In this document: one piece after another, positions 501 to 19,809 of the stretch
How the letters are laid out: every line of letters starts with the position of its first letter
Position numbering within the stretch: the stretch's first letter is position 1
IMG/VR virus record: IMGVR_UViG_3300021079_000016
Span: 1 to 46,281 of that record
Source: a virus
DNA length: 46,281 bases
Strand: one strand, 5' to 3'
The notes under the pieces: model-generated
Database searches by the model: none
The model's input: the letters and a program-made list of their open reading frames with translations, nothing else
Told to the model about the DNA's origin: nothing
Translations under genes and position numbers: made by a program

Positions 501-3500
501 ATGGCTTATACATATAATCCTAAAACAAAAAGTTATGAAGATAATACACCAACAGCGCTAAATCGGCCTGCTCGAAATTATAACTTTAAATTAGATCCGT
601 CTACTTTTAGTAAAAAATATTTATCTTACAAGTATACTCCACAAGAATTTGGTCAATTAGCCCAATCAGGTTATGTTGGTTCTTATGGTAATGGTGTTCT
701 TGGAGTTAAGGCTCCAGCATATGATGCTAAGGCTGCTTTAGAGCAGATTCGTAAAGGTAATACTCCTGCTCAGTTTCGTTTGCCTGATAATTATGTAGGA
801 CACAATCTTATTGATGTGGTAGAAACTCCTAATCCTACTGGTCTTCAATTACTTGAGTGGACTAAACGAGCAGAAAAATTTGATTTAAATAAGTATGTTG
901 CTCAATATGGTCATGTTCCTAGCACAGATAGTGTTTATTACCAGTTTTTTGATCCGTCTGGTGCTGCTGCTCCTGCTTTGGATAAGGCTCGTGGTAATGC
1001 GGTAGAAGCATATCAAACAGAATCAGATAAGATTGCTGCTGGTAAACTATATGCTTTGGCTACGGCTACTAAAGATCCTAATCTTCAGGCACTTAGTACT
1101 AAGTTGCCGGGGCTTCGTATGTTTACTCCCGCTGAACGCGCTAAAGTTACTGGTATTCTACGAGATTTTGGATTGACTGCGGCTGGTAATAGCACTATTC
1201 CTGAGAATCTTGGTTCTAAATATCTTCTTCCTGTTAGTGCGCTTGGTATGGGTCCTGCTGGAGTTACTCAATTGCCGGGTGGTAAAACTACTACTACTAG
1301 TGGTATTTCTGCTTCTGCTGGTAATGATAGTCTTGTTTCTAAGGCTATGGGTGTTTCTCCTATTCTTAGTCTGGTTGCTCAGAATTCTGTGTATAAAGAT
1401 CTTAATGCTCAGGCTAATAAGGGCATTCTGGCTGCTACTCCTGCTAGTGAAGTTACGCCTTTATCTTTTCTTACGAATGCTATTAAGGGTGTTGCTCGTG
1501 CTGGTTTAGGTTTTCCTATGGGTGTTTATGCGTTTGCTACTGATCCGATTGGTACTGGTACTGCTATGCTTAAGGACTATGGTAAGCGGTATGGCGGTTT
1601 GTGGGGTGATCCTAATTCTAATTTTATTGCTTCTACTTTAGAGGATCCTACGGTTCCTATTCTTGATGTACTTGGGCTTGTTCCGATTGTGGGGGCTGGT
1701 GCTAAGGCTGCACAGTTTGCTAAGGTTGCTAGTATTACTGGTAAAGGCGCTCATTTGGCTGAAGCGGAACGTGTTGCTAATGCTCGTATAGTATTAGAAT
1801 CGGCTCGTGGTAGTGGGGGTGTTTGGGCTGAAAAAGGGGCTGGTGTTCTTGAGGCTAAGGCTCGTATTGCTAATAGTAGTACTTTTGCTAAAGAGCAGGG
1901 TTTAATTAAAATTGCTCTTGATAAAGCAAAAAAAGTTATTGCGTCTAATACTCTTAATGCTGATGGGCTTAATGCCGCTGAAGAGGCTGCGTATACAACT
2001 GCTAAAAATCGACATGATGCTATTGTTCAAGCAAACCCTCAAGGGCCTCATGCCCCTGCTCCTAAACCCTCTAGTTTTATTAACCCTACAGATCGACATT
2101 CTGAGGCTATGGTTTCTGCGGCTAGAAATACTCTAGAGACGGGTGTGCCGCTTACTAAGTTAGATAGTGCTGGTAAGATTAGTCGTATGGGTGAAAGTAT
2201 TAGAGAGTTTGCTAGGGTACAAAATGATGCGCTTAATGGTAATGCTCATGCGGCTGTTACTATTGGTGAGATGGCTCCCGAAGGTTATCATGGGCTTAAT
2301 AGTTCTTATGCTCCTACTTTTGTGGATCGCGCAGCAGCGTTTTTTGAGCCTCGGTGGTCAACATTTAGTCCTGCGGATACTATGGGGTCGCTTCTTGAAG
2401 GTAAGTTAAATAGAGAAAATTTTGCTAAATTAACGCCTCTTGTACAAGAAAATCTTGCTGCTGGTGGTAGTGCTGATGCTGTTATTAATACTTCTGCTCC
2501 TATTCGTTTTACTGGCAGTCCTATTGCTCGTGCTTTACAAAAAACTTTTTTTAGTGCTCAAAAGGCTGTTGCTAGGAAGGGTATTGATTCTTCGGCTAAT
2601 CCTGCTGTGCGAGCAATTGCTGGTACTTTTATGAGTATGCCTTTGCTTGGTTTTAATTATCGGTATGCTAAGGCTCTTACGACGGATGTTAATAGTGTTG
2701 GTACTCTTGTTCAACGCGAGTTAATGCAGCATAGGATGTTTGAAGAACTTATTAATGTTGATGGTAAGCATAAGTTGGGTGCTATTACTGATCCGGAACA
2801 ATTGGCTATTATGTCTCAGGTTAGTGGTGGTATGTATGATCCTAGTATTCTTCGTAGTATTGCTGCGCGTCGGCTTGAAATTGAGAGGGCTAATCCGGGT
2901 CACGTTGCTGGTAATACAAAAGATCTTATTCAAACGTATATTAATGATTTGAATTCTCCAGAGTTTATGGCTGCTTATCGTCAGGCTACGCATGAAATGT
3001 TGACTGGTTCTACTGAGCGTGGTGTTCGTTTGGCTCGTGCTAGGGATCATTTTAGGCAGAAGCATGATATGATTCATCATGAGGCTGGTGTTGAATTAAG
3101 CCGTCTTGATATTAATGCTTTAGCGCGTATTTATGCGCCTGCAATTAATGCGTTTGGTTTAGAACCTAAAATGATTCTTAATGCTATTGAAAAAGTTGTT
3201 GAGGGTGGTTCTAAACGATTAGCGGTTTTTAATGATAATTTTCATCTTTTTGAGACTTCTAAGGTAATAGATTTGCCTGCTAATAAGGGTGATTTAACTT
3301 TGTTGCAGCGTATTAATGCTGGAGAGTTTGATAGGGCTAGGGGTAAGCGTCCGGCTATGAGTCGTGCTGAGGCTTTAGCGCATTATAAAAATCTTATGGA
3401 TACGTTTGAGGCTGCTAGGCAGGTTTTAAAGTCTAATAATAATTATCGTTCTATGGGTAATGCGCCTTTTTTTGTTGTTGAAAAAAATAATGGTGTTCGT

Positions 3501-6350
3501 ACTGGAGTTTTTGGTCAGAAAACTATTCGTGGTCGTATGGTGCATATTACGGGGGATGTTGGTCCTAATGGTTGGGGTTCTATGAATCCAGAATATGTCT
3601 CGTCTCATATTATTGAGTTACCTTCAGAGATTTTTAGAAAGTCTGAAAAAAATAGAAAGTCTGTGTTGCATTATGGTGCTCCAGATAAAAACGAGAATCT
3701 TAATCCACATTCTGATTTGTATGATCAGTTGCAGCGCGGTGGTGTAAATTATCTTATGAAGATGTTTCCTGATGCTAGAGATTTTTCTGATAAGGCTAGT
3801 TTGGAAACTATGAAGGGTCGTGAAACGTTTGCTGATTTTGCTAACGCTAATACGATTGCTGCTAGTGGTTTGTTGGATTATCATTTAAAGGTCCAGTTTC
3901 AGGCTCATCGTGAGGCTGTTAATCGTAGGTTTAATAAGGATATTCAGAGTGTTGTTGAACAGTCGGCTGTTCCTATGCTTTTAAGTGATTTTATGAAACA
4001 AAATAAGGCTAAGCCTTATGTGGCCTTAAAGACGCTTAAGTTTCATACGGATCTTCCTAGTGCTCAAAATTATGCTGATAGTATTGGTTTGGATGGTACT
4101 GTTGAAAAAGGGCAGGTTATGTATGTTAGTATTGGTGGTAAACAGCATTATGTTACTCGTATGCAGTTTATTGATTCTTCTAGTGTTGCTTTAGATGAGG
4201 CGCGTACTCATGCGCTTAGTGGCGCTAATGTTTGGAAAGATGGTATTTTTGCTGATCAATCTCATTTAAATACTGTTATTGCTGAAGATCCTAATGCGCT
4301 TATTATGGTTACTCCTAGGAAACTTGTTGATGATTTAACAAAATCTTATGAGCGTAGTCATTCTCTTGCTAGTAAAATTTTTTCGGGTTCTACTGATATT
4401 TTTAAGATGATGGCTTTGTCTTTGAATCCTAGGTTTGTTTCTCAGCAGATTTTTGGTGGTACAGTGATGTTGATGTTGGCGGATCCTCAAAATGCTGGTC
4501 ATATTCTTGCCAAATTTATGGAGTATTCGCATCGTAATATGGCTCGTGCTGTTAAAAATAAGTATGGTCATACTATTACTAATGAGTTTGTTAATCATGG
4601 TGATGATTATGATATTATTATGAATCGGTTTATTCGTGATTTTGAGGATAATATTTATATGCAAGATGCTCACCAATCTTTTATTGGTAGGTATGGTGAG
4701 AACGCTAATCGTGTTGGTCAAAAAGTTTCTGCTGCTGCTAATATTGGTTATACGGTTTCTTTTGCTTTGGAAAAGAATTTGCGTGTGGCTATTGCTCGTA
4801 AAGCGGCTCTTAATTTTCCGGGTTTTAATCATTTTATGAAGAGTGAGGCTGTGGCTAAACATGCGGCTGAAGGATTGCCTGAAATGGGTTATACAACTGT
4901 TAGTCCTTTTGCGGCTGCTATGGATCTTCTTTCTGATCCTCGTAGTATGTATCATAATCCTATGTTTCTTCGTGAAGTGCGGCATACGGCGGATATGGTT
5001 AGTGGTAATTATCGTGATTTTACTAAGGCTGAACGCGCTGTTCGTAATTTTGCTATTCCTTTTTATGCTTGGACTCGTCATTCGGCTATGTTTACTAAGC
5101 GTTTAATTCAAGAACGACCTTTAACAGCAAATAGTGTTTATAATACTGGTAATTATGGTTATGAACAATTGTTTGAGCGGGGTGGTATGCCTGATTGGTT
5201 GTTAGAGTCTGTTCCTATGCCTAATTTTGTTAAGGAAGTTCTTGGTGTTGATCCTAATCGTGAGAATCGTATTGGGTTTGGTAGTATTAATCCGTTTGGT
5301 GCTATGGCTAATGCTGTGACTACTCTTGGTGGTGTTGCTACGGGCGGTTCTCTTAAGGGTGGTGCTTTTCAGTTTACTAACCCGTTTATTAATTCGTTTA
5401 TTGAACAGCAGACTGGTAAGAGTCTTCTTACTGGTGCGCCTTCTGGTGATTCTATGTCTAGTTTTATGGGTATTCCTAGTCTTCCGGGTATGCCGGGGCG
5501 TATTCAGACTACGCTTGCTGGTTTGCCGCTTCCTAAACTTATTGCTCAGGCTTATACGCAAGAGACTATGATGAATCAGTTGCGTGGTAATACTAATCCC
5601 TTAGATATTTTTAAGGATCCGTATGCTCCTGATTCTAAATTAGGTATTCCGCAGCCTAAACTTAATTATAAGTTTCCTACTCAGAGTCCGGCTGGTTTGT
5701 TTAACTCGTTTACTCCGTTTAGTGTGTATAGTCTTGATCCTAAGCAGTTAGGTATTGCTATTGCTACTGAGGCTACACAGCATGGTATTGCTTTTCAAAA
5801 TAATAAGATGGATATGAATAAGGGTGCTTGGCGTACTATTAATGCTTTGTCTAAGTGGATGGCTACTAGGGATTATGTTAATAATGTTTGGATTCCACAG
5901 TTTGGTGATCAGAATCCTGCTACTAAAGACCGTGTTCTTAAGCAGTTGGCTTTAGAGTATCCTCATATTCCTGATACTTTTCCTCAGGGTATGGTTAATC
6001 AGGTTCTTAATGGTCAGTTAAGTCCTGATATGGCTGCTAAGCAGGTTGTGTCTTATAATCCGGGTGCTAGGGCGGCTGCTAATCCTGTTAGTGGTCCTGC
6101 GAATACTAATCATCTTGTTGCTGCTAATTCTTCTGATCCTACTACTATTGCGTATGATCGGCCTGCTGGTAGTGTTAATGTTGTTCCTACTGTTACGATT
6201 AGTTCTAATGGTTATGTGTTTGTTAATAATCGTCCTTATATGGATCAGCAGACTGGTAAGCAGGTTAAGTATGTTGTTAATGCTAAGGGTGAGATTGTGT
6301 ATGATTCGTCGGGTAATCCTATTATTGATGTGAAAGGCATGGGTGGATGA
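501..6350 (+). CDS. Very large internal virion/ejection-like protein (1949 aa)
   Basis: This is the largest gene of the window, with a clear AAGGAG ribosome binding site at 490-495. It encodes 1949 residues of mixed helical, Ala/Gly-rich sequence with hydrophobic stretches, for example around residues 1300-1340. A conserved-looking aromatic/basic segment with IPFYAWTRHSAMFTKRLI lies near residue 1520, and a Pro/Asn-rich C-terminal region follows. I see no transglycosylase or RNA-polymerase motif. Size and position, after the fibre genes and before holin-like genes, match the large ejected proteins of T7-like phages (gp16) or the polyvalent proteins of other podoviruses. The assignment is by context, not by a confirmed domain. 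Confidence 0.6.
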   Translation: MAYTYNPKTKSYEDNTPTALNRPARNYNFKLDPSTFSKKYLSYKYTPQEFGQLAQSGYVGSYGNGVLGVKAPAYDAKAALEQIRKGNTPAQFRLPDNYVGHNLIDVVETPNPTGLQLLEWTKRAEKFDLNKYVAQYGHVPSTDSVYYQFFDPSGAAAPALDKARGNAVEAYQTESDKIAAGKLYALATATKDPNLQALSTKLPGLRMFTPAERAKVTGILRDFGLTAAGNSTIPENLGSKYLLPVSALGMGPAGVTQLPGGKTTTTSGISASAGNDSLVSKAMGVSPILSLVAQNSVYKDLNAQANKGILAATPASEVTPLSFLTNAIKGVARAGLGFPMGVYAFATDPIGTGTAMLKDYGKRYGGLWGDPNSNFIASTLEDPTVPILDVLGLVPIVGAGAKAAQFAKVASITGKGAHLAEAERVANARIVLESARGSGGVWAEKGAGVLEAKARIANSSTFAKEQGLIKIALDKAKKVIASNTLNADGLNAAEEAAYTTAKNRHDAIVQANPQGPHAPAPKPSSFINPTDRHSEAMVSAARNTLETGVPLTKLDSAGKISRMGESIREFARVQNDALNGNAHAAVTIGEMAPEGYHGLNSSYAPTFVDRAAAFFEPRWSTFSPADTMGSLLEGKLNRENFAKLTPLVQENLAAGGSADAVINTSAPIRFTGSPIARALQKTFFSAQKAVARKGIDSSANPAVRAIAGTFMSMPLLGFNYRYAKALTTDVNSVGTLVQRELMQHRMFEELINVDGKHKLGAITDPEQLAIMSQVSGGMYDPSILRSIAARRLEIERANPGHVAGNTKDLIQTYINDLNSPEFMAAYRQATHEMLTGSTERGVRLARARDHFRQKHDMIHHEAGVELSRLDINALARIYAPAINAFGLEPKMILNAIEKVVEGGSKRLAVFNDNFHLFETSKVIDLPANKGDLTLLQRINAGEFDRARGKRPAMSRAEALAHYKNLMDTFEAARQVLKSNNNYRSMGNAPFFVVEKNNGVRTGVFGQKTIRGRMVHITGDVGPNGWGSMNPEYVSSHIIELPSEIFRKSEKNRKSVLHYGAPDKNENLNPHSDLYDQLQRGGVNYLMKMFPDARDFSDKASLETMKGRETFADFANANTIAASGLLDYHLKVQFQAHREAVNRRFNKDIQSVVEQSAVPMLLSDFMKQNKAKPYVALKTLKFHTDLPSAQNYADSIGLDGTVEKGQVMYVSIGGKQHYVTRMQFIDSSSVALDEARTHALSGANVWKDGIFADQSHLNTVIAEDPNALIMVTPRKLVDDLTKSYERSHSLASKIFSGSTDIFKMMALSLNPRFVSQQIFGGTVMLMLADPQNAGHILAKFMEYSHRNMARAVKNKYGHTITNEFVNHGDDYDIIMNRFIRDFEDNIYMQDAHQSFIGRYGENANRVGQKVSAAANIGYTVSFALEKNLRVAIARKAALNFPGFNHFMKSEAVAKHAAEGLPEMGYTTVSPFAAAMDLLSDPRSMYHNPMFLREVRHTADMVSGNYRDFTKAERAVRNFAIPFYAWTRHSAMFTKRLIQERPLTANSVYNTGNYGYEQLFERGGMPDWLLESVPMPNFVKEVLGVDPNRENRIGFGSINPFGAMANAVTTLGGVATGGSLKGGAFQFTNPFINSFIEQQTGKSLLTGAPSGDSMSSFMGIPSLPGMPGRIQTTLAGLPLPKLIAQAYTQETMMNQLRGNTNPLDIFKDPYAPDSKLGIPQPKLNYKFPTQSPAGLFNSFTPFSVYSLDPKQLGIAIATEATQHGIAFQNNKMDMNKGAWRTINALSKWMATRDYVNNVWIPQFGDQNPATKDRVLKQLALEYPHIPDTFPQGMVNQVLNGQLSPDMAAKQVVSYNPGARAAANPVSGPANTNHLVAANSSDPTTIAYDRPAGSVNVVPTVTISSNGYVFVNNRPYMDQQTGKQVKYVVNAKGEIVYDSSGNPIIDVKGMGG

Positions 6351-10484: not shown

Positions 10485-10527
10485 GATATGCTACGTTATA
10501 CACGATAAACGTGAACAACAATCATTA

Positions 10528-10610
10528 TGAGGCGGGAAGGATTCGAACCCCCATACCTTTCGGTAGCAGACTTGGTTTCCTGCCGTGTATACCAATTTCA
10601 CCACCGCCCC
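10528..10610 (-). tRNA. tRNA-Leu-like gene with atypical anticodon loop
   Basis: The minus-strand RNA has a 7-bp acceptor stem (GGGGCGG with CCGCCTC, one G-T pair), a leucine-type D loop (AAATTGGTATA), a class II variable arm TACC-GAAA-GGTA, and a T loop in GGTTCGAATCC, with A73. All this fits tRNA-Leu. The anticodon stem GCAGG/TCTGC encloses an 8-base loop, AAACCAAG, with no U33. CAA (reading UUG) is the anticodon that fits leucine, but it is not certain. CCA is not encoded. It lies 2 bases downstream of the second tRNA gene. Confidence 0.7.
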
Positions 10611-10612
10611 AA

Positions 10613-10694
10613 TGCCCATAACAGGACTCGAACCTGTACGCATTTCTGCGATTGATTTTAAGTCAATTTCGTCTACCAATTCCGACATACGGGC
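10613..10694 (-). tRNA. tRNA-Leu(UAA)
   Basis: The acceptor GCCCGTA pairs with TATGGGC (one G-T), the discriminator is A, and the T arm is CAGGTTCGAGTCCTG. The anticodon stem ATTGA/TCAAT holds the loop CTTAAAA, so the anticodon is UAA and the codon UUA. The variable arm CGCA-GAAA-TGCG is that of a class II tRNA. All leucine identity features are normal. It is co-directional with nrdJ and its neighbour. Confidence 0.93.
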
Positions 10695-14272: not shown

Positions 14273-14992
14273 TTAGTTAATCACGCGGATGAATGCTGCA
14301 ACGTTTTTAAGGTCGTGAGTGTTAGTCGCAACCATACCAATACCCGTGTTACCTTCAAGAGATTTAAAATTACCCTTAGCAACTGGGCTGAGTACCATCC
14401 CAACATGGTCTGGAGTACCATCTCGATTCCAATCAAACAACACAACATCACCGGGCCGCGCATCTGTTTTATCAATAATCTTCAAACCATTACGATGAGC
14501 CTTAGCATCCTCAAGGATAAACGGACAATACGCCCAACGATTACCCTTAACAAACGCCTTAGAACCAGCGCCAACATAACAATAGGTAACAAACATCGCA
14601 CACCACGGACCTGTAATACCATACCACTTAGAGAACATAACCTCGTTCGAGCCGGGAGGATTTTCCTTCACACCAACATACTTACTACCAATATCTAGTG
14701 CCTTAGCGCCAAGATCCGACTTAGAATGTCGAATACGAGCACGACGCTGCATAAAAATCGTAGGCTTCTTAGTGCCAATTAGAAACGAGGCAAGCAGATC
14801 ACCAAACTCTCCTGTAACATTCTTATCCGCATACCCAAGACTCCACTTAGCAGCCTTAGTAGCCGCCGCAGTCTCCTGACCATACACACTATCCATCTTA
14901 CCCGAATAATAACCAGCATTCTTAAGCAATTTCTGAGCCGCACCAACCTCAGCACTCTTAACATTTGGACTAGTCAAAACTAGTGTCTTCAT
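14273..14992 (-). CDS. Endolysin: peptidoglycan-binding plus CHAP domain
   Basis: The 239-residue product has an N-terminal helical repeat of the PG_binding_1 type (about residues 8-70, QKLLKNAGYYSGKMDSVYG). A CHAP domain follows (about 95-235) with the nucleophile Cys at 131 in GPWCAMFV, the His at 196 in DHVGMV, and LEGNTG supplying the polar third residue. CHAP enzymes cut peptide bonds in peptidoglycan. Unusually it lies in the replication operon, between DUF3310 and helicase genes, with a 4-base overlap (ATGA) with the gene upstream. Confidence 0.88.
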   Translation of the reverse strand: MKTLVLTSPNVKSAEVGAAQKLLKNAGYYSGKMDSVYGQETAAATKAAKWSLGYADKNVTGEFGDLLASFLIGTKKPTIFMQRRARIRHSKSDLGAKALDIGSKYVGVKENPPGSNEVMFSKWYGITGPWCAMFVTYCYVGAGSKAFVKGNRWAYCPFILEDAKAHRNGLKIIDKTDARPGDVVLFDWNRDGTPDHVGMVLSPVAKGNFKSLEGNTGIGMVATNTHDLKNVAAFIRVIN

Positions 14993-15225
14993 ACCATACT
15001 CCTATCGTGTTTAATAATTCTTTGCTCCTCAATCCACAAGAGCCGATCAATGTACCACTTTGCTTTACGCAAATCTTCAATACCATTCTTATGCCTATAC
15101 CTAGAAACATACTTAAGTACATTACCTTGGTGATAGTCTAAGCCTAACCCTTCAATTGCTGTGATAACCTCCATAGATCCCTGCGTATAATGCTTAGGAC
15201 TATTTACCGGGTCATCAATTGCCAC
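14989..15225 (-). CDS. DUF3310 family protein
   Basis: The 78-residue product matches the compact phage family DUF3310: SPKHYTQG, EVITAIEGLGLDYHQGNVLKY, SRYRHKNG and EDLRKAKWYIDRL. The biochemical role is unknown, although members sit with nucleotide and replication genes. The start is a GTG with a strong AAGGAGGAG site located inside the end of the polymerase C-terminal gene. Confidence 0.88.
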   Translation of the reverse strand: MAIDDPVNSPKHYTQGSMEVITAIEGLGLDYHQGNVLKYVSRYRHKNGIEDLRKAKWYIDRLLWIEEQRIIKHDRSMV

Positions 15226-15958
15226 TATACTCCTCCTTTTCTGCCCAACTAGTATACGAGATTTCGCAATCTGTATCTATACTAACGAATTTGGACACCG
15301 TTTTATTCCCCATAAGGTTAGGAATAGTTGTAATGATTTTGTTAACTTCGTTCTTATCAGCATCAATGATGATCTCATCATGCACGATATTTACTATATG
15401 ACTAGCATATTTCGAACATAGGTGCTTGTCTACTTTTACTACGCTGTCTCGCATAAGGTCTGCTGCTGAGCCTTGAATCAAAGCATTAAGAGCCTTATGC
15501 TCTGTATCAACATGAAGCCTACGACCATACAAATTACGAATAAAACCCTTAGAACCAAGACTCGTAGCAATATACTCGTTAAGAATCTTAATACCCGGAC
15601 GAGTCGTATGATACGCCGTAAGAAGCCTACGAGCCTCCTTATAAGGCACATCCAACTGATTCATAATAGTTTTAGTACCACCACCATAAATAATACTAAA
15701 ATTAAGAGTCTTACCTACTTGACGCTCCTCTTCGGATACGTCTGACTTGTTGTACAAGCCTTGTGCGGTAATTGCATGGGGGTCCGAACCATTATTGATT
15801 TCGGTAGCCAACGAATAATCCCTAATTCCAGCGGCAAGGTAGTATGCGAGAAGTCTGACTTCAATCGCTTTGTAGTCGAAGAATAAGAATGCGTCAAGTT
15901 TAGGCTTGAATGCTCGTTTAACATCTTTCTGACTCCTAGGAATATTCTGAACGTTCAT
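15215..15958 (-). CDS. DNA polymerase A, C-terminal (polymerase) part
   Basis: The protein begins at the ATG of MNVQNIPR, the conserved segment just before polymerase motif A. DYKAIEVRLLAYY is motif A (catalytic Asp, residue 28), RQVGKTLNFSIIYGG is motif B of the fingers, and IVHDEI is motif C. Exonuclease and thumb are missing; they are encoded by the separate upstream gene 16123-17061. The break falls between the GTRTGRMSSG and NVQNIP segments, which are adjacent in intact family A enzymes. The two products must associate, or be rejoined in some way, to make a complete polymerase. The 68-residue gene between them overlaps both. Confidence 0.88.
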   Translation of the reverse strand: MNVQNIPRSQKDVKRAFKPKLDAFLFFDYKAIEVRLLAYYLAAGIRDYSLATEINNGSDPHAITAQGLYNKSDVSEEERQVGKTLNFSIIYGGGTKTIMNQLDVPYKEARRLLTAYHTTRPGIKILNEYIATSLGSKGFIRNLYGRRLHVDTEHKALNALIQGSAADLMRDSVVKVDKHLCSKYASHIVNIVHDEIIIDADKNEVNKIITTIPNLMGNKTVSKFVSIDTDCEISYTSWAEKEEYSGN

Positions 15959-16142
15959 AATCATCACCAATCCGTATCATAATCTCATAAACAGTAATTG
16001 CCTCATCAAAATTAGCAGCATAAACAGGGACAGTAGGACCAATCCGCTTGCCAGAATCAACATCACGCATAGTCACAATGTATAATTCCCAAGTAGGATC
16101 CTCATAATCATCCCAATAAGCATCATACTCCGGCTTGTCCAC
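15936..16142 (-). CDS. Small acidic protein encoded in the break of the DNA polymerase gene
   Basis: The 68-residue product starts at a GTG inside the end of the exonuclease gene and ends inside the start of the polymerase gene, overlapping them by 20 and 23 bases. It is acidic and aromatic at the N-terminus (YDAYWDDYEDPTWELY), followed by a small alpha/beta-like part with NFDEAITVYEI. No nuclease motif (HNH, GIY-YIG, LAGLIDADG) is visible, so it is not an obvious homing endonuclease. It could be a linker or accessory subunit of the split polymerase; this is inference from position. Confidence 0.6.
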   Translation of the reverse strand: MDKPEYDAYWDDYEDPTWELYIVTMRDVDSGKRIGPTVPVYAANFDEAITVYEIMIRIGDDYERSEYS

Positions 16143-17061
16143 TACTCATCCTACCAGTACGAGTACCATGCTGACGAAAATTAGGATGAAGAATCCCATC
16201 CTTAGCCTCCTCAGCAAGCGCATCAAGATACGTCACCTTAATCTTATTAGCCTCCCGCAACTCCACAATCAAAGTAGCAAGTTCATCATCTAATGCCGCT
16301 AAGGAAGCCTTGTCCGTCGCTGTGATTCGTACTCCACGCTGTGCAAAGACTTCGATGACTTGCTTAGGGGACTGCGGGTTGAATTCCGCGCCAGCAATCT
16401 CCCCAATACGATGCTTAATCCTGTAAATCCGATCACCATACTCTTTTCTCTGTGTAGTTACATACTTCTTATCAATAGCCATACCACGCGCTTCAATGCC
16501 TAACAACGATATTGTTAATTCTTTTTCAATGTTGTACAACGGGAGCAAGTCTTCGGGCATTCGACTCCGTAATACTTCGTAAAGCCGCAGTGTGAACTCT
16601 GCATCTTTTGCTGCATAGGGAGCAAGAATCTCATGCGGGATAGGTTCATAACCTTCCTCTTTCTTAATTTTATTTTCTCTACGCCATACCTTAAGTACCT
16701 CATCCTCGTCTGTCCCTTCGTTTAGAACGGTACGGGCTAGATACTTTAGGCTAGTAGATTGTTGCTCATTAATAAGGTGAGCAATTGCTTGAGTATCTTC
16801 AAATTTATCTTTGAATACTTTTAGTGGGATACCTAGTCGGCATAGTTTTTGTATGTCGAACTTGGCGTTATGCATGATGATCTTGTCAGCCTTGTTAAGT
16901 TGATTAACCACCATCGCAACATCCCTATCCCATCTAGTACTATTACGCCTATCACATACTACTGTAGTTAACGTTCCATCTAATTCGTATGCAATACTAA
17001 TCATGAACGCATCATCATGCCAATCCACACCAGTTGTCTCTGTGTCAATGGCTAACAGCAT
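16123..17061 (-). CDS. DNA polymerase A, N-terminal (3'-5' exonuclease and thumb) part
   Basis: The 312-residue product has the proofreading motifs Exo I (AIDTET), Exo II (HNAKFDIQK) and Exo III (YAAKDAEFTL), then the thumb region and ILHPNFRQHGTRTGRMSSG, the entry to the polymerase palm. It stops four codons later, exactly where intact enzymes continue with a (P)N(L/V)QNIP segment. It starts with the TAATG overlap of the upstream gene. The rest of the enzyme is encoded at 15215-15958. Confidence 0.88.
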   Translation of the reverse strand: MLLAIDTETTGVDWHDDAFMISIAYELDGTLTTVVCDRRNSTRWDRDVAMVVNQLNKADKIIMHNAKFDIQKLCRLGIPLKVFKDKFEDTQAIAHLINEQQSTSLKYLARTVLNEGTDEDEVLKVWRRENKIKKEEGYEPIPHEILAPYAAKDAEFTLRLYEVLRSRMPEDLLPLYNIEKELTISLLGIEARGMAIDKKYVTTQRKEYGDRIYRIKHRIGEIAGAEFNPQSPKQVIEVFAQRGVRITATDKASLAALDDELATLIVELREANKIKVTYLDALAEEAKDGILHPNFRQHGTRTGRMSSGQAGV

Positions 17062-17429
17062 TAATCCATCCGATAATCTTGAGGTGCTTTACGAGTCTTG
17101 TACAAAATATCCATAATGTTACCAACACTCATACGCTCAGGTTTAATTTCAGCATCAGCGGTCCTACAACGACAGTCATCACAATCACAACCAGCCTGAG
17201 CCGGAGTATAAAACGCACCAAACTCATCACACTCATCATCAGGACTCCACGGATTATTATAACCATCAAACAAAGAATCATCACCAAGAACATCTTCAGG
17301 AAACGATGACATATCATCATAAAGAATATTATCACCCAACTCATCAAGATACATCTCTAAATTATCCAACGCAAACCTAATAGTATTAACATAAGCACCT
17401 ATAGCACTAACATGACCATACTTATTCAT
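17061..17429 (-). CDS. Acidic hypothetical protein with Cys cluster
   Basis: The 122-residue product is strongly acidic and carries GCDCDDCRC near residue 82, a compact group of four Cys (plus one Cys at about 67) that could bind a metal. The spacing does not match WhiB or a standard zinc finger. It is coupled to both neighbours by TAATG overlaps, between the polymerase exonuclease gene and the Rad52-like gene. Confidence 0.6.
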   Translation of the reverse strand: MNKYGHVSAIGAYVNTIRFALDNLEMYLDELGDNILYDDMSSFPEDVLGDDSLFDGYNNPWSPDDECDEFGAFYTPAQAGCDCDDCRCRTADAEIKPERMSVGNIMDILYKTRKAPQDYRMD

Positions 17430-19615: not shown

Positions 19616-19729
19616 AGAATAATCTAAAAATTAACAAACTCTTTACATATAAGCAACACTTATAAGCGATAAAAATGTGAAGTGAAAATCCCCAAGCCCC
19701 TAAAAGTAAGAATAATAAACAATAAAAAG
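19616..19729 (-). other. AT-rich spacer between tmRNA-like RNA and replication promoter
   Basis: This stretch is very AT-rich and holds no gene. On the minus strand it contains two near-identical direct repeats (GCTTATAAG and GCTTATATG) about 13 bases apart, upstream of the promoter at 19587-19615. They could be regulator sites or simply AT-rich DNA. Confidence 0.35.
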
Positions 19730-19809
19730 TGGAGGCGGCTGGAATCGAACCAGCGTCCACGATGCTTCCCGTATAGGGCGTTCACACCATGTCAAAACCC
19801 TTCGCCCCC
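19730..19809 (-). ncRNA. tmRNA-like RNA: alanine-type acceptor domain without mRNA-like domain
   Basis: The 80-nt minus-strand RNA has a 7-bp acceptor stem, GGGGGCG with CGCCTCC, with a G3-U70 wobble and A73: the identity elements read by alanyl-tRNA synthetase. The T arm is perfect, GCTGG-TTCGATT-CCAGC. In place of a D arm it has AAGGGTTTTGACA, which resembles the 5' region of bacterial tmRNA (AACGGTTTCGACT in mycobacteria), and AAGCATCGTGGAC precedes the T arm as in tmRNA 3' ends. A bulged helix (ACGCCC with GGG...CGT, loop TATAC) replaces the anticodon arm. There is no resume codon or tag frame, and CCA is not encoded. A degenerate tRNA-Ala is the alternative. Confidence 0.65.

What the first reader, a model, noticed from the sequence alone, without database searches (positions are those of the whole stretch)
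15215..17061. Family A DNA polymerase split at the palm entrance, with a 68-residue gene overlapping both halves
The exonuclease/thumb product stops right after GTRTGRMSSG, and the polymerase product starts with NVQNIP, which follows directly in intact enzymes. The insert of about 176 bases is not a multiple of three, so simple deletion would not restore one frame, and it carries a small gene that overlaps both parts. All catalytic motifs remain, so a two- or three-part enzyme is likely. No homing endonuclease or intein motif is visible.
Basis: partly seen in the sequence, partly recalled or inferred. Interest (0 to 1): 0.72.

Follow-up and report, generated by a model that had tools for sequence, protein, structure and literature searches.

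The report
Two-piece phage DNA polymerase, gene-insertion hotspot
A group of uncultured viruses of bacteria makes its only recognised DNA-copying enzyme as two separate proteins cut at exactly the same point inside the catalytic core, and different passenger genes keep coming and going in that cut, so an essential enzyme has become a docking site for other genes.

Summary
In this ~46 kb phage the family A DNA polymerase is encoded by two genes (exonuclease/thumb/start of palm, 16123-17061; rest of palm/fingers, 15215-15958, minus strand). The break corresponds to E. coli Pol I residues 672/675. A 68-aa gene overlaps both. It is not an assembly error or a local accident: all 37 close IMG/VR contigs with both halves and 7 distant ones (about 37-43% identical) are cut at the same seam, all 192 loci classed as continuous lie under 35% identity, and split sequences form one clade (SH-aLRT 99). 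The small gene is not a constant third part. The seam is a slot: empty (4-nt stop/start overlap, 4 contigs), a 255-aa glycosyltransferase (17 contigs), the small gene, both, or others (SLOG-like protein, carbamoyltransferase, metallophosphoesterase, endonucleases). At least 12 cargo changes are needed within the clade. Seams mostly use ATGA/GTGA overlaps; no intron or intein was found. Best explanation: one ancient fission produced a two-chain polymerase made by coupled translation, and the seam then became a gene-insertion hotspot. Known parallels: split gp43 of T4-like phages, split NrdA of Aeh1, and MEP401 (family A, different break). New variant of a known kind; function untested.

The parts
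16123..17061 (-). Exo half: 3'-5' exonuclease (DEDDy), thumb and first part of the palm of the family A DNA polymerase; 312 aa, ends TGRMSSG-QAGV*
   Evidence: PF01612 1.5e-16 and PF00476 positions 2-124; D6, E8, D69, Y149, D153 and R304 invariant in 21 sequences
15215..15958 (-). Pol half: remaining palm and fingers with motifs A, B and C; 247 aa from the ATG directly before NVQNIP
   Evidence: PF00476 positions 127-380, 5e-45; D27, E32, K82, N85, F86, Y90, H192, D193, E194 invariant in 24 sequences; model pLDDT 87, TM 0.84 to Bacillus Pol I
15936..16142 (-). Small cargo gene: 68-aa acidic protein (GTG start) overlapping exo by 20 nt and pol by 23 nt
   Evidence: Family of 11 aligned members at the same seam, found nowhere else in the fetched loci, dN/dS 0.09-0.32; predicted beta-beta-alpha; no Pfam, PHROG or NCBIfam match
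15959..16122 (-). The seam: 164 nt between the exo stop codon and the pol ATG; -4 nt in relatives with an empty slot, 760 nt with a glycosyltransferase, up to 1936 nt in others
17061..17429 (-). Upstream neighbour in the same run of overlapping genes, 122 aa, unknown
   Evidence: No Pfam or PHROG match
14989..15225 (-). Downstream neighbour, DUF3310 protein overlapping the end of the pol half
   Evidence: PF11753 1.3e-18

Best explanation
The phage's replicative DNA polymerase is a two-chain family A enzyme. An ancestor of this phage clade had its polymerase gene broken once, in the loop between the GR(M)SS strand and the N-x-QNIP strand of the palm. The two pieces are now separate genes on one strand, joined mostly by stop/start overlaps (ATGA, GTGA), so that ribosomes ending one gene can start the next. 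The two proteins fold and associate to rebuild one palm: the first chain brings exonuclease, thumb and the primer-contacting Arg (equivalent of E. coli R668), the second brings motifs A, B and C. Because the seam is no longer inside a reading frame, other genes can sit there without breaking the polymerase, and such genes (glycosyltransferase, small acidic protein, endonucleases and others) are gained and lost there often. Shown here: exact break, conservation, single clade, catalytic residues, cargo turnover, overlaps. Inferred: coupled translation, assembly of the chains, activity, and that an endonuclease insertion may have caused the first break.
For: Both halves cover the PF00476 profile with almost no residue lost (2-124 and 127-380); on Klenow the break lies between chain residues 349 and 352, i.e. 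residues 672 and 675 (the +323 offset is from general knowledge). All 37 close contigs with both halves share it, as do 7 distant ones; loci classed as continuous are all under 35% identical. One clade, SH-aLRT 99. Cargo: at least 12 changes, glycosyltransferase at least 7, small gene at least 6; L025 (empty) and L026 (glycosyltransferase) have pol halves 98.1% identical in DNA. Exo stop is in ATGA/GTGA context in 36 of 38 sequences. 14 of 14 larger relative records hold exactly two PF00476 pieces; the window has no PolB or PolC match. Nearest capsid-sharing annotated phages (Jasmine, Shocker, ctEqG8) have a DNA polymerase annotated in one ORF. Endonucleases at the seam: L011 HNH 6.6e-22, L281 endonuclease VII 2.1e-24. 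Precedent: split 43A/43B of phage 25 co-purify and are active, split Aeh1 NrdA is functional (PMC2988022).
Against: No protein or RNA data exist for these uncultured phages; assembly and activity are not shown, and no complex could be modelled. In four relatives the pol half would have to start at ATT, ACG or ATC (L079, L011, L076, L279), which is unusual. Two distant pol halves (L281, L077) show frame breaks near their start, possibly sequencing errors. The window record is not certified complete, so a second polymerase elsewhere cannot be fully excluded. Several inner branches of the trees are weak.
Confidence: 0.82

Rival explanations
1. The small protein is a third, structural subunit of the polymerase, for example a processivity or bridging factor, whose gene was placed between the halves for co-expression.
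For: Conserved family found only at this seam, under purifying selection, gene next to the pol half in all but one relative, translationally overlapping it in the window.
Against: Absent in most relatives with otherwise normal split polymerases, including four with nothing at the seam; at least 6 gains or losses on the tree; in L011 an HNH gene lies between it and the pol half; no fold match.
Confidence: 0.12
2. The two halves are joined after transcription or translation: a group I or II intron, ribosomal bypassing, or a split intein.
For: Phage polymerase genes are known intron and intein sites; the authors of the MEP401 paper suggested an intron for their split case (PMC10580990).
Against: No intron matches Rfam in the window or in 13 relative loci; the 164-nt insert is too short for a group I intron; empty relatives have no insert but still two frames; inserts hold complete, conserved reading frames; pol halves begin right at (M/V)NVQNIP, leaving no room for an intein piece.
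Confidence: 0.04
3. Assembly or sequencing error, or a decaying polymerase.
For: Frame breaks are common errors in metagenome contigs; L281 and L077 show such breaks.
Against: Same seam in 44 relative contigs from many metagenomes; conserved catalytic residues; no other polymerase recognised in the window record.
Confidence: 0.01
4. Origin question, compatible with the best explanation: the fission itself was caused by insertion of a homing endonuclease, later lost or replaced by other cargo, as in Aeh1 nrdA.
For: HNH in L011, endonuclease VII in L281 and a weak LAGLIDADG-like ORF in L077 at the same seam in separate lineages; T4-type precedents.
Against: Most members carry no endonuclease; the endonucleases belong to different families and may have arrived after the split.
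Confidence: 0.45

Closest known systems
Split family B polymerase gp43 (43A/43B) of T4-related Aeromonas phages 25 and 44RR
   Same: Replicative phage polymerase encoded by two genes with an insertion or endonuclease between; in phage 25 the two chains co-purify and have activity (PMC2988022)
   Different: Family B, not A; described in two phages, not a deep clade with many different cargo genes
Split DNA polymerase of Methylophilales phages MEP401/MEP402 (Zobellviridae)
   Same: Family A polymerase in two ORFs with a small unknown ORF between (PMC10580990)
   Different: Break lies later, after PNLQNFDGEIKTLFLSRYGE and just before motif A; middle ORF shows no evident similarity; authors proposed an intron; different phage lineage by annotation
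Genes-in-pieces NrdA of Aeromonas phage Aeh1 (mobE) and T4 topoisomerase gene 60 (mobA)
   Same: Essential enzyme split by an inserted gene and still functional
   Different: Different enzymes; the cargo is an endonuclease
DNA polymerase I of Arthrobacter phage Jasmine, Microbacterium phage Shocker and podovirus ctEqG8
   Same: Phages sharing the capsid protein (34-36% identical in parts) and carrying a DNA polymerase in a similar replication block
   Different: Annotated as one ORF

Membership tests
Family A DNA polymerase | PF00476 fold with motifs A, B, C | tested here: met
Family A DNA polymerase | Proofreading 3'-5' exonuclease motifs (DEDDy), present in many members | tested here: met
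   PF01612; D6, E8, D69, Y149, D153 invariant
Family A DNA polymerase | Usual single continuous polypeptide (typical, not defining) | tested here: not met
   Two genes in the window and 44 relatives
Family A DNA polymerase | Polymerase activity | not testable with these tools
   No expression data
Genes-in-pieces by homing endonuclease (T4/Aeh1 type) | Endonuclease gene at the break | tested here: inconclusive
   None in the window; present in L011, L281, possibly L077
Genes-in-pieces by homing endonuclease (T4/Aeh1 type) | Separate chains reassemble into active enzyme | not testable with these tools
   Needs protein work
Group I/II intron | Catalytic intron RNA at the break | tested here: not met
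Split intein | Intein halves fused to the fragment ends | tested here: not met
   Exo half has only 4 extra residues after SSG and pol half only its start Met before NVQNIP
MEP401-type split polymerase | Break just before motif A | tested here: not met
   Break here is upstream of N-x-QNIP

The most novel reading that the evidence does not exclude
The seam is a maintained gene-capture site: a precise stop/start slot inside one of the most conserved genes of a phage lineage, where cargo is exchanged by recombination between conserved flanks (possibly started by endonuclease cuts), giving cargo guaranteed co-expression with replication; the small acidic protein may be a regulatory partner of the two-chain polymerase in those phages that carry it.
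Probability: 0.3. Interest if true: 0.78.

Novelty: new variant of a known kind. Interest (0 to 1): 0.62.

Why it matters
A deep, stable fission inside the palm of a family A polymerase gives a natural two-chain version of a textbook enzyme, useful for asking what holds the palm together and for building controllable split polymerases. The rapid turnover of different genes at one exact seam shows how breaking an essential gene can turn it into a safe landing site for passengers, and gives a rich series (empty, one, two or more cargo genes) for testing how such hotspots work.

Tried and rejected
Direct search for the 68-aa protein in annotated phages and IMG/VR: nothing; its homologues were found only by position in relatives. 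Fold search with its model: no match. Rfam at the seam: no intron. Host search in about 85,000 prokaryote genomes: only distant matches (about 35% or less), mostly Treponema and Chloroflexi, so no host or prophage. Terminase gave only distant hits; the capsid protein pointed to actinobacterial phages. Literature searches found no description of this clade or break. L108/L109, classed as split by the script, have a different interruption inside motif A and are not counted. A sequencing error was considered and rejected because of the relatives.

Full report
What is there. On the minus strand the window carries, in order, an exonuclease/thumb gene (17061-16123), a 68-aa gene (16142-15936) and a polymerase gene (15958-15215). 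The first covers Pfam DNA_pol_A positions 2-124 plus the 3'-5' exonuclease domain, the second piece positions 127-380. Against Klenow the first stops at chain residue 349 and the second starts at 352, which by the usual numbering is between residues 672 and 675 of E. coli Pol I. So the break lies in the loop between TGRMSS and N-V-QNIP, inside the palm: the first chain keeps the Arg equivalent to R668, the second keeps motifs A, B and C. Active-site residues of both domains are invariant in the alignments. The pol half alone is predicted with good confidence (pLDDT 87) and matches Bacillus Pol I with TM 0.84; only its first residues are poorly defined.

Relatives. IMG/VR holds 37 contigs with both halves at 62-84% identity over the exo half, and every one has the same break. 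Seven more distant contigs (L075-L079, L279, L281; about 37-43% identical) have it too. In the automatic survey every locus classed as continuous had less than 35% identity to the queries (192 loci, some from the same contig). In a tree with nine intact sequences the 34 split rows form one clade with SH-aLRT 99 (several long branches, quick method). One ancient fission is therefore the simplest history. Fourteen larger records each contain exactly two DNA_pol_A pieces, and the window record has no family B or PolC match, so this appears to be the phage's replicase. The nearest annotated phages by capsid protein (Arthrobacter phage Jasmine, Microbacterium phage Shocker, podovirus ctEqG8) have a DNA polymerase annotated in a single ORF; an actinobacterial host is suggested but remains an inference.

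The seam is a slot. Between the halves relatives carry nothing (L005, L012, L019, L025: stop and start overlap by 4 nt), a 255-aa family 2 glycosyltransferase (gap exactly 760 nt, 17 contigs), the small gene (window, L013/L015, L146), both (L009, L014/L016, L022, L029/L030), or further ORFs with these (L011, L033, L147, L148/L149, L151). Distant relatives carry SLOG-like proteins (L075, L076, L078), an aspartate/ornithine carbamoyltransferase (L079), a metallophosphoesterase (L279), an endonuclease VII (L281) or a weak LAGLIDADG-like ORF (L077). The exo stop codon sits in ATGA or GTGA in 36 of 38 sequences, and the pol start codon directly precedes N-V-QNIP. On the tree of 29 close members cargo needs at least 12 changes, presence of the glycosyltransferase 7 and of the small gene 6. 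L025 (empty) and L026 (glycosyltransferase) have pol halves 98.1% identical in DNA, so exchange looks recent and continuing.

The small gene. The 10 relatives aligned with it are 23-47% identical to it; all are acidic, and the predicted core is beta-beta-alpha with no match in Pfam, PHROGs, NCBIfam or, by fold, the PDB. It occurs in the fetched loci only at this seam and is under purifying selection (dN/dS 0.09-0.32). It is a real gene, but because most relatives lack it, it is better seen as cargo than as a required third part.

Mechanism. Shown: exact break, depth of conservation, clade, catalytic residues, cargo turnover and overlaps. Inferred: the halves are translated in a coupled way and associate. 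Introns were not found, inteins do not fit the fragment ends, and sequence error is excluded by the relatives. Whether an endonuclease made the first break is open: endonucleases sit at the seam in two lineages and perhaps a third, as in T4-like phages, but most members have none.

Known parallels. In T4-related phage 25 the split gp43 halves co-purify with polymerase activity, and the split Aeh1 NrdA is functional (PMC2988022). MEP401/MEP402 have a family A polymerase in two ORFs with a small ORF between (PMC10580990), but broken further downstream, just before motif A. The present case is thus a new variant: another site, another lineage, conserved across a clade, with a changing set of cargo genes. 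The library holds only open-licence papers, so a description elsewhere cannot be excluded.

Noticed in passing
window 10527-10611 (-): tRNA-like gene with an over-long anticodon loop (ARAGORN gives a four-base anticodon), next to a normal tRNA-Leu(taa) at 10613-10694.
   Followed up: partly
window 19727-19809 (-): Rfam tmRNA match of 62 bits but only 83 nt long; not found when a 301-nt stretch was searched alone, so possibly spurious or a tRNA-like remnant.
   Followed up: partly
L108 2184-3300 (also L109): A different family A polymerase interrupted inside motif A, between GGDFS and Q-x-E, by about 230 nt with stop codons and no Rfam match.
   Followed up: partly
L079, L011, L076, L279 at the pol-half start: The codon directly before N-x-QN is ATT, ATT, ACG and ATC instead of ATG or GTG; possible unusual start codons.
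   Followed up: partly
L281 about 6890; L077 about 6560: Frame breaks near the start of the pol half; sequencing error or real change not decided.
   Followed up: no
L002 and L003, exo half: Pol halves identical in DNA; exo halves identical over the last ~540 nt but only 46-93% over the first 360: a recombination boundary inside the exonuclease gene.
   Followed up: no
window 501-6350 (+): 1949-aa protein with no PHROG match.
   Followed up: no
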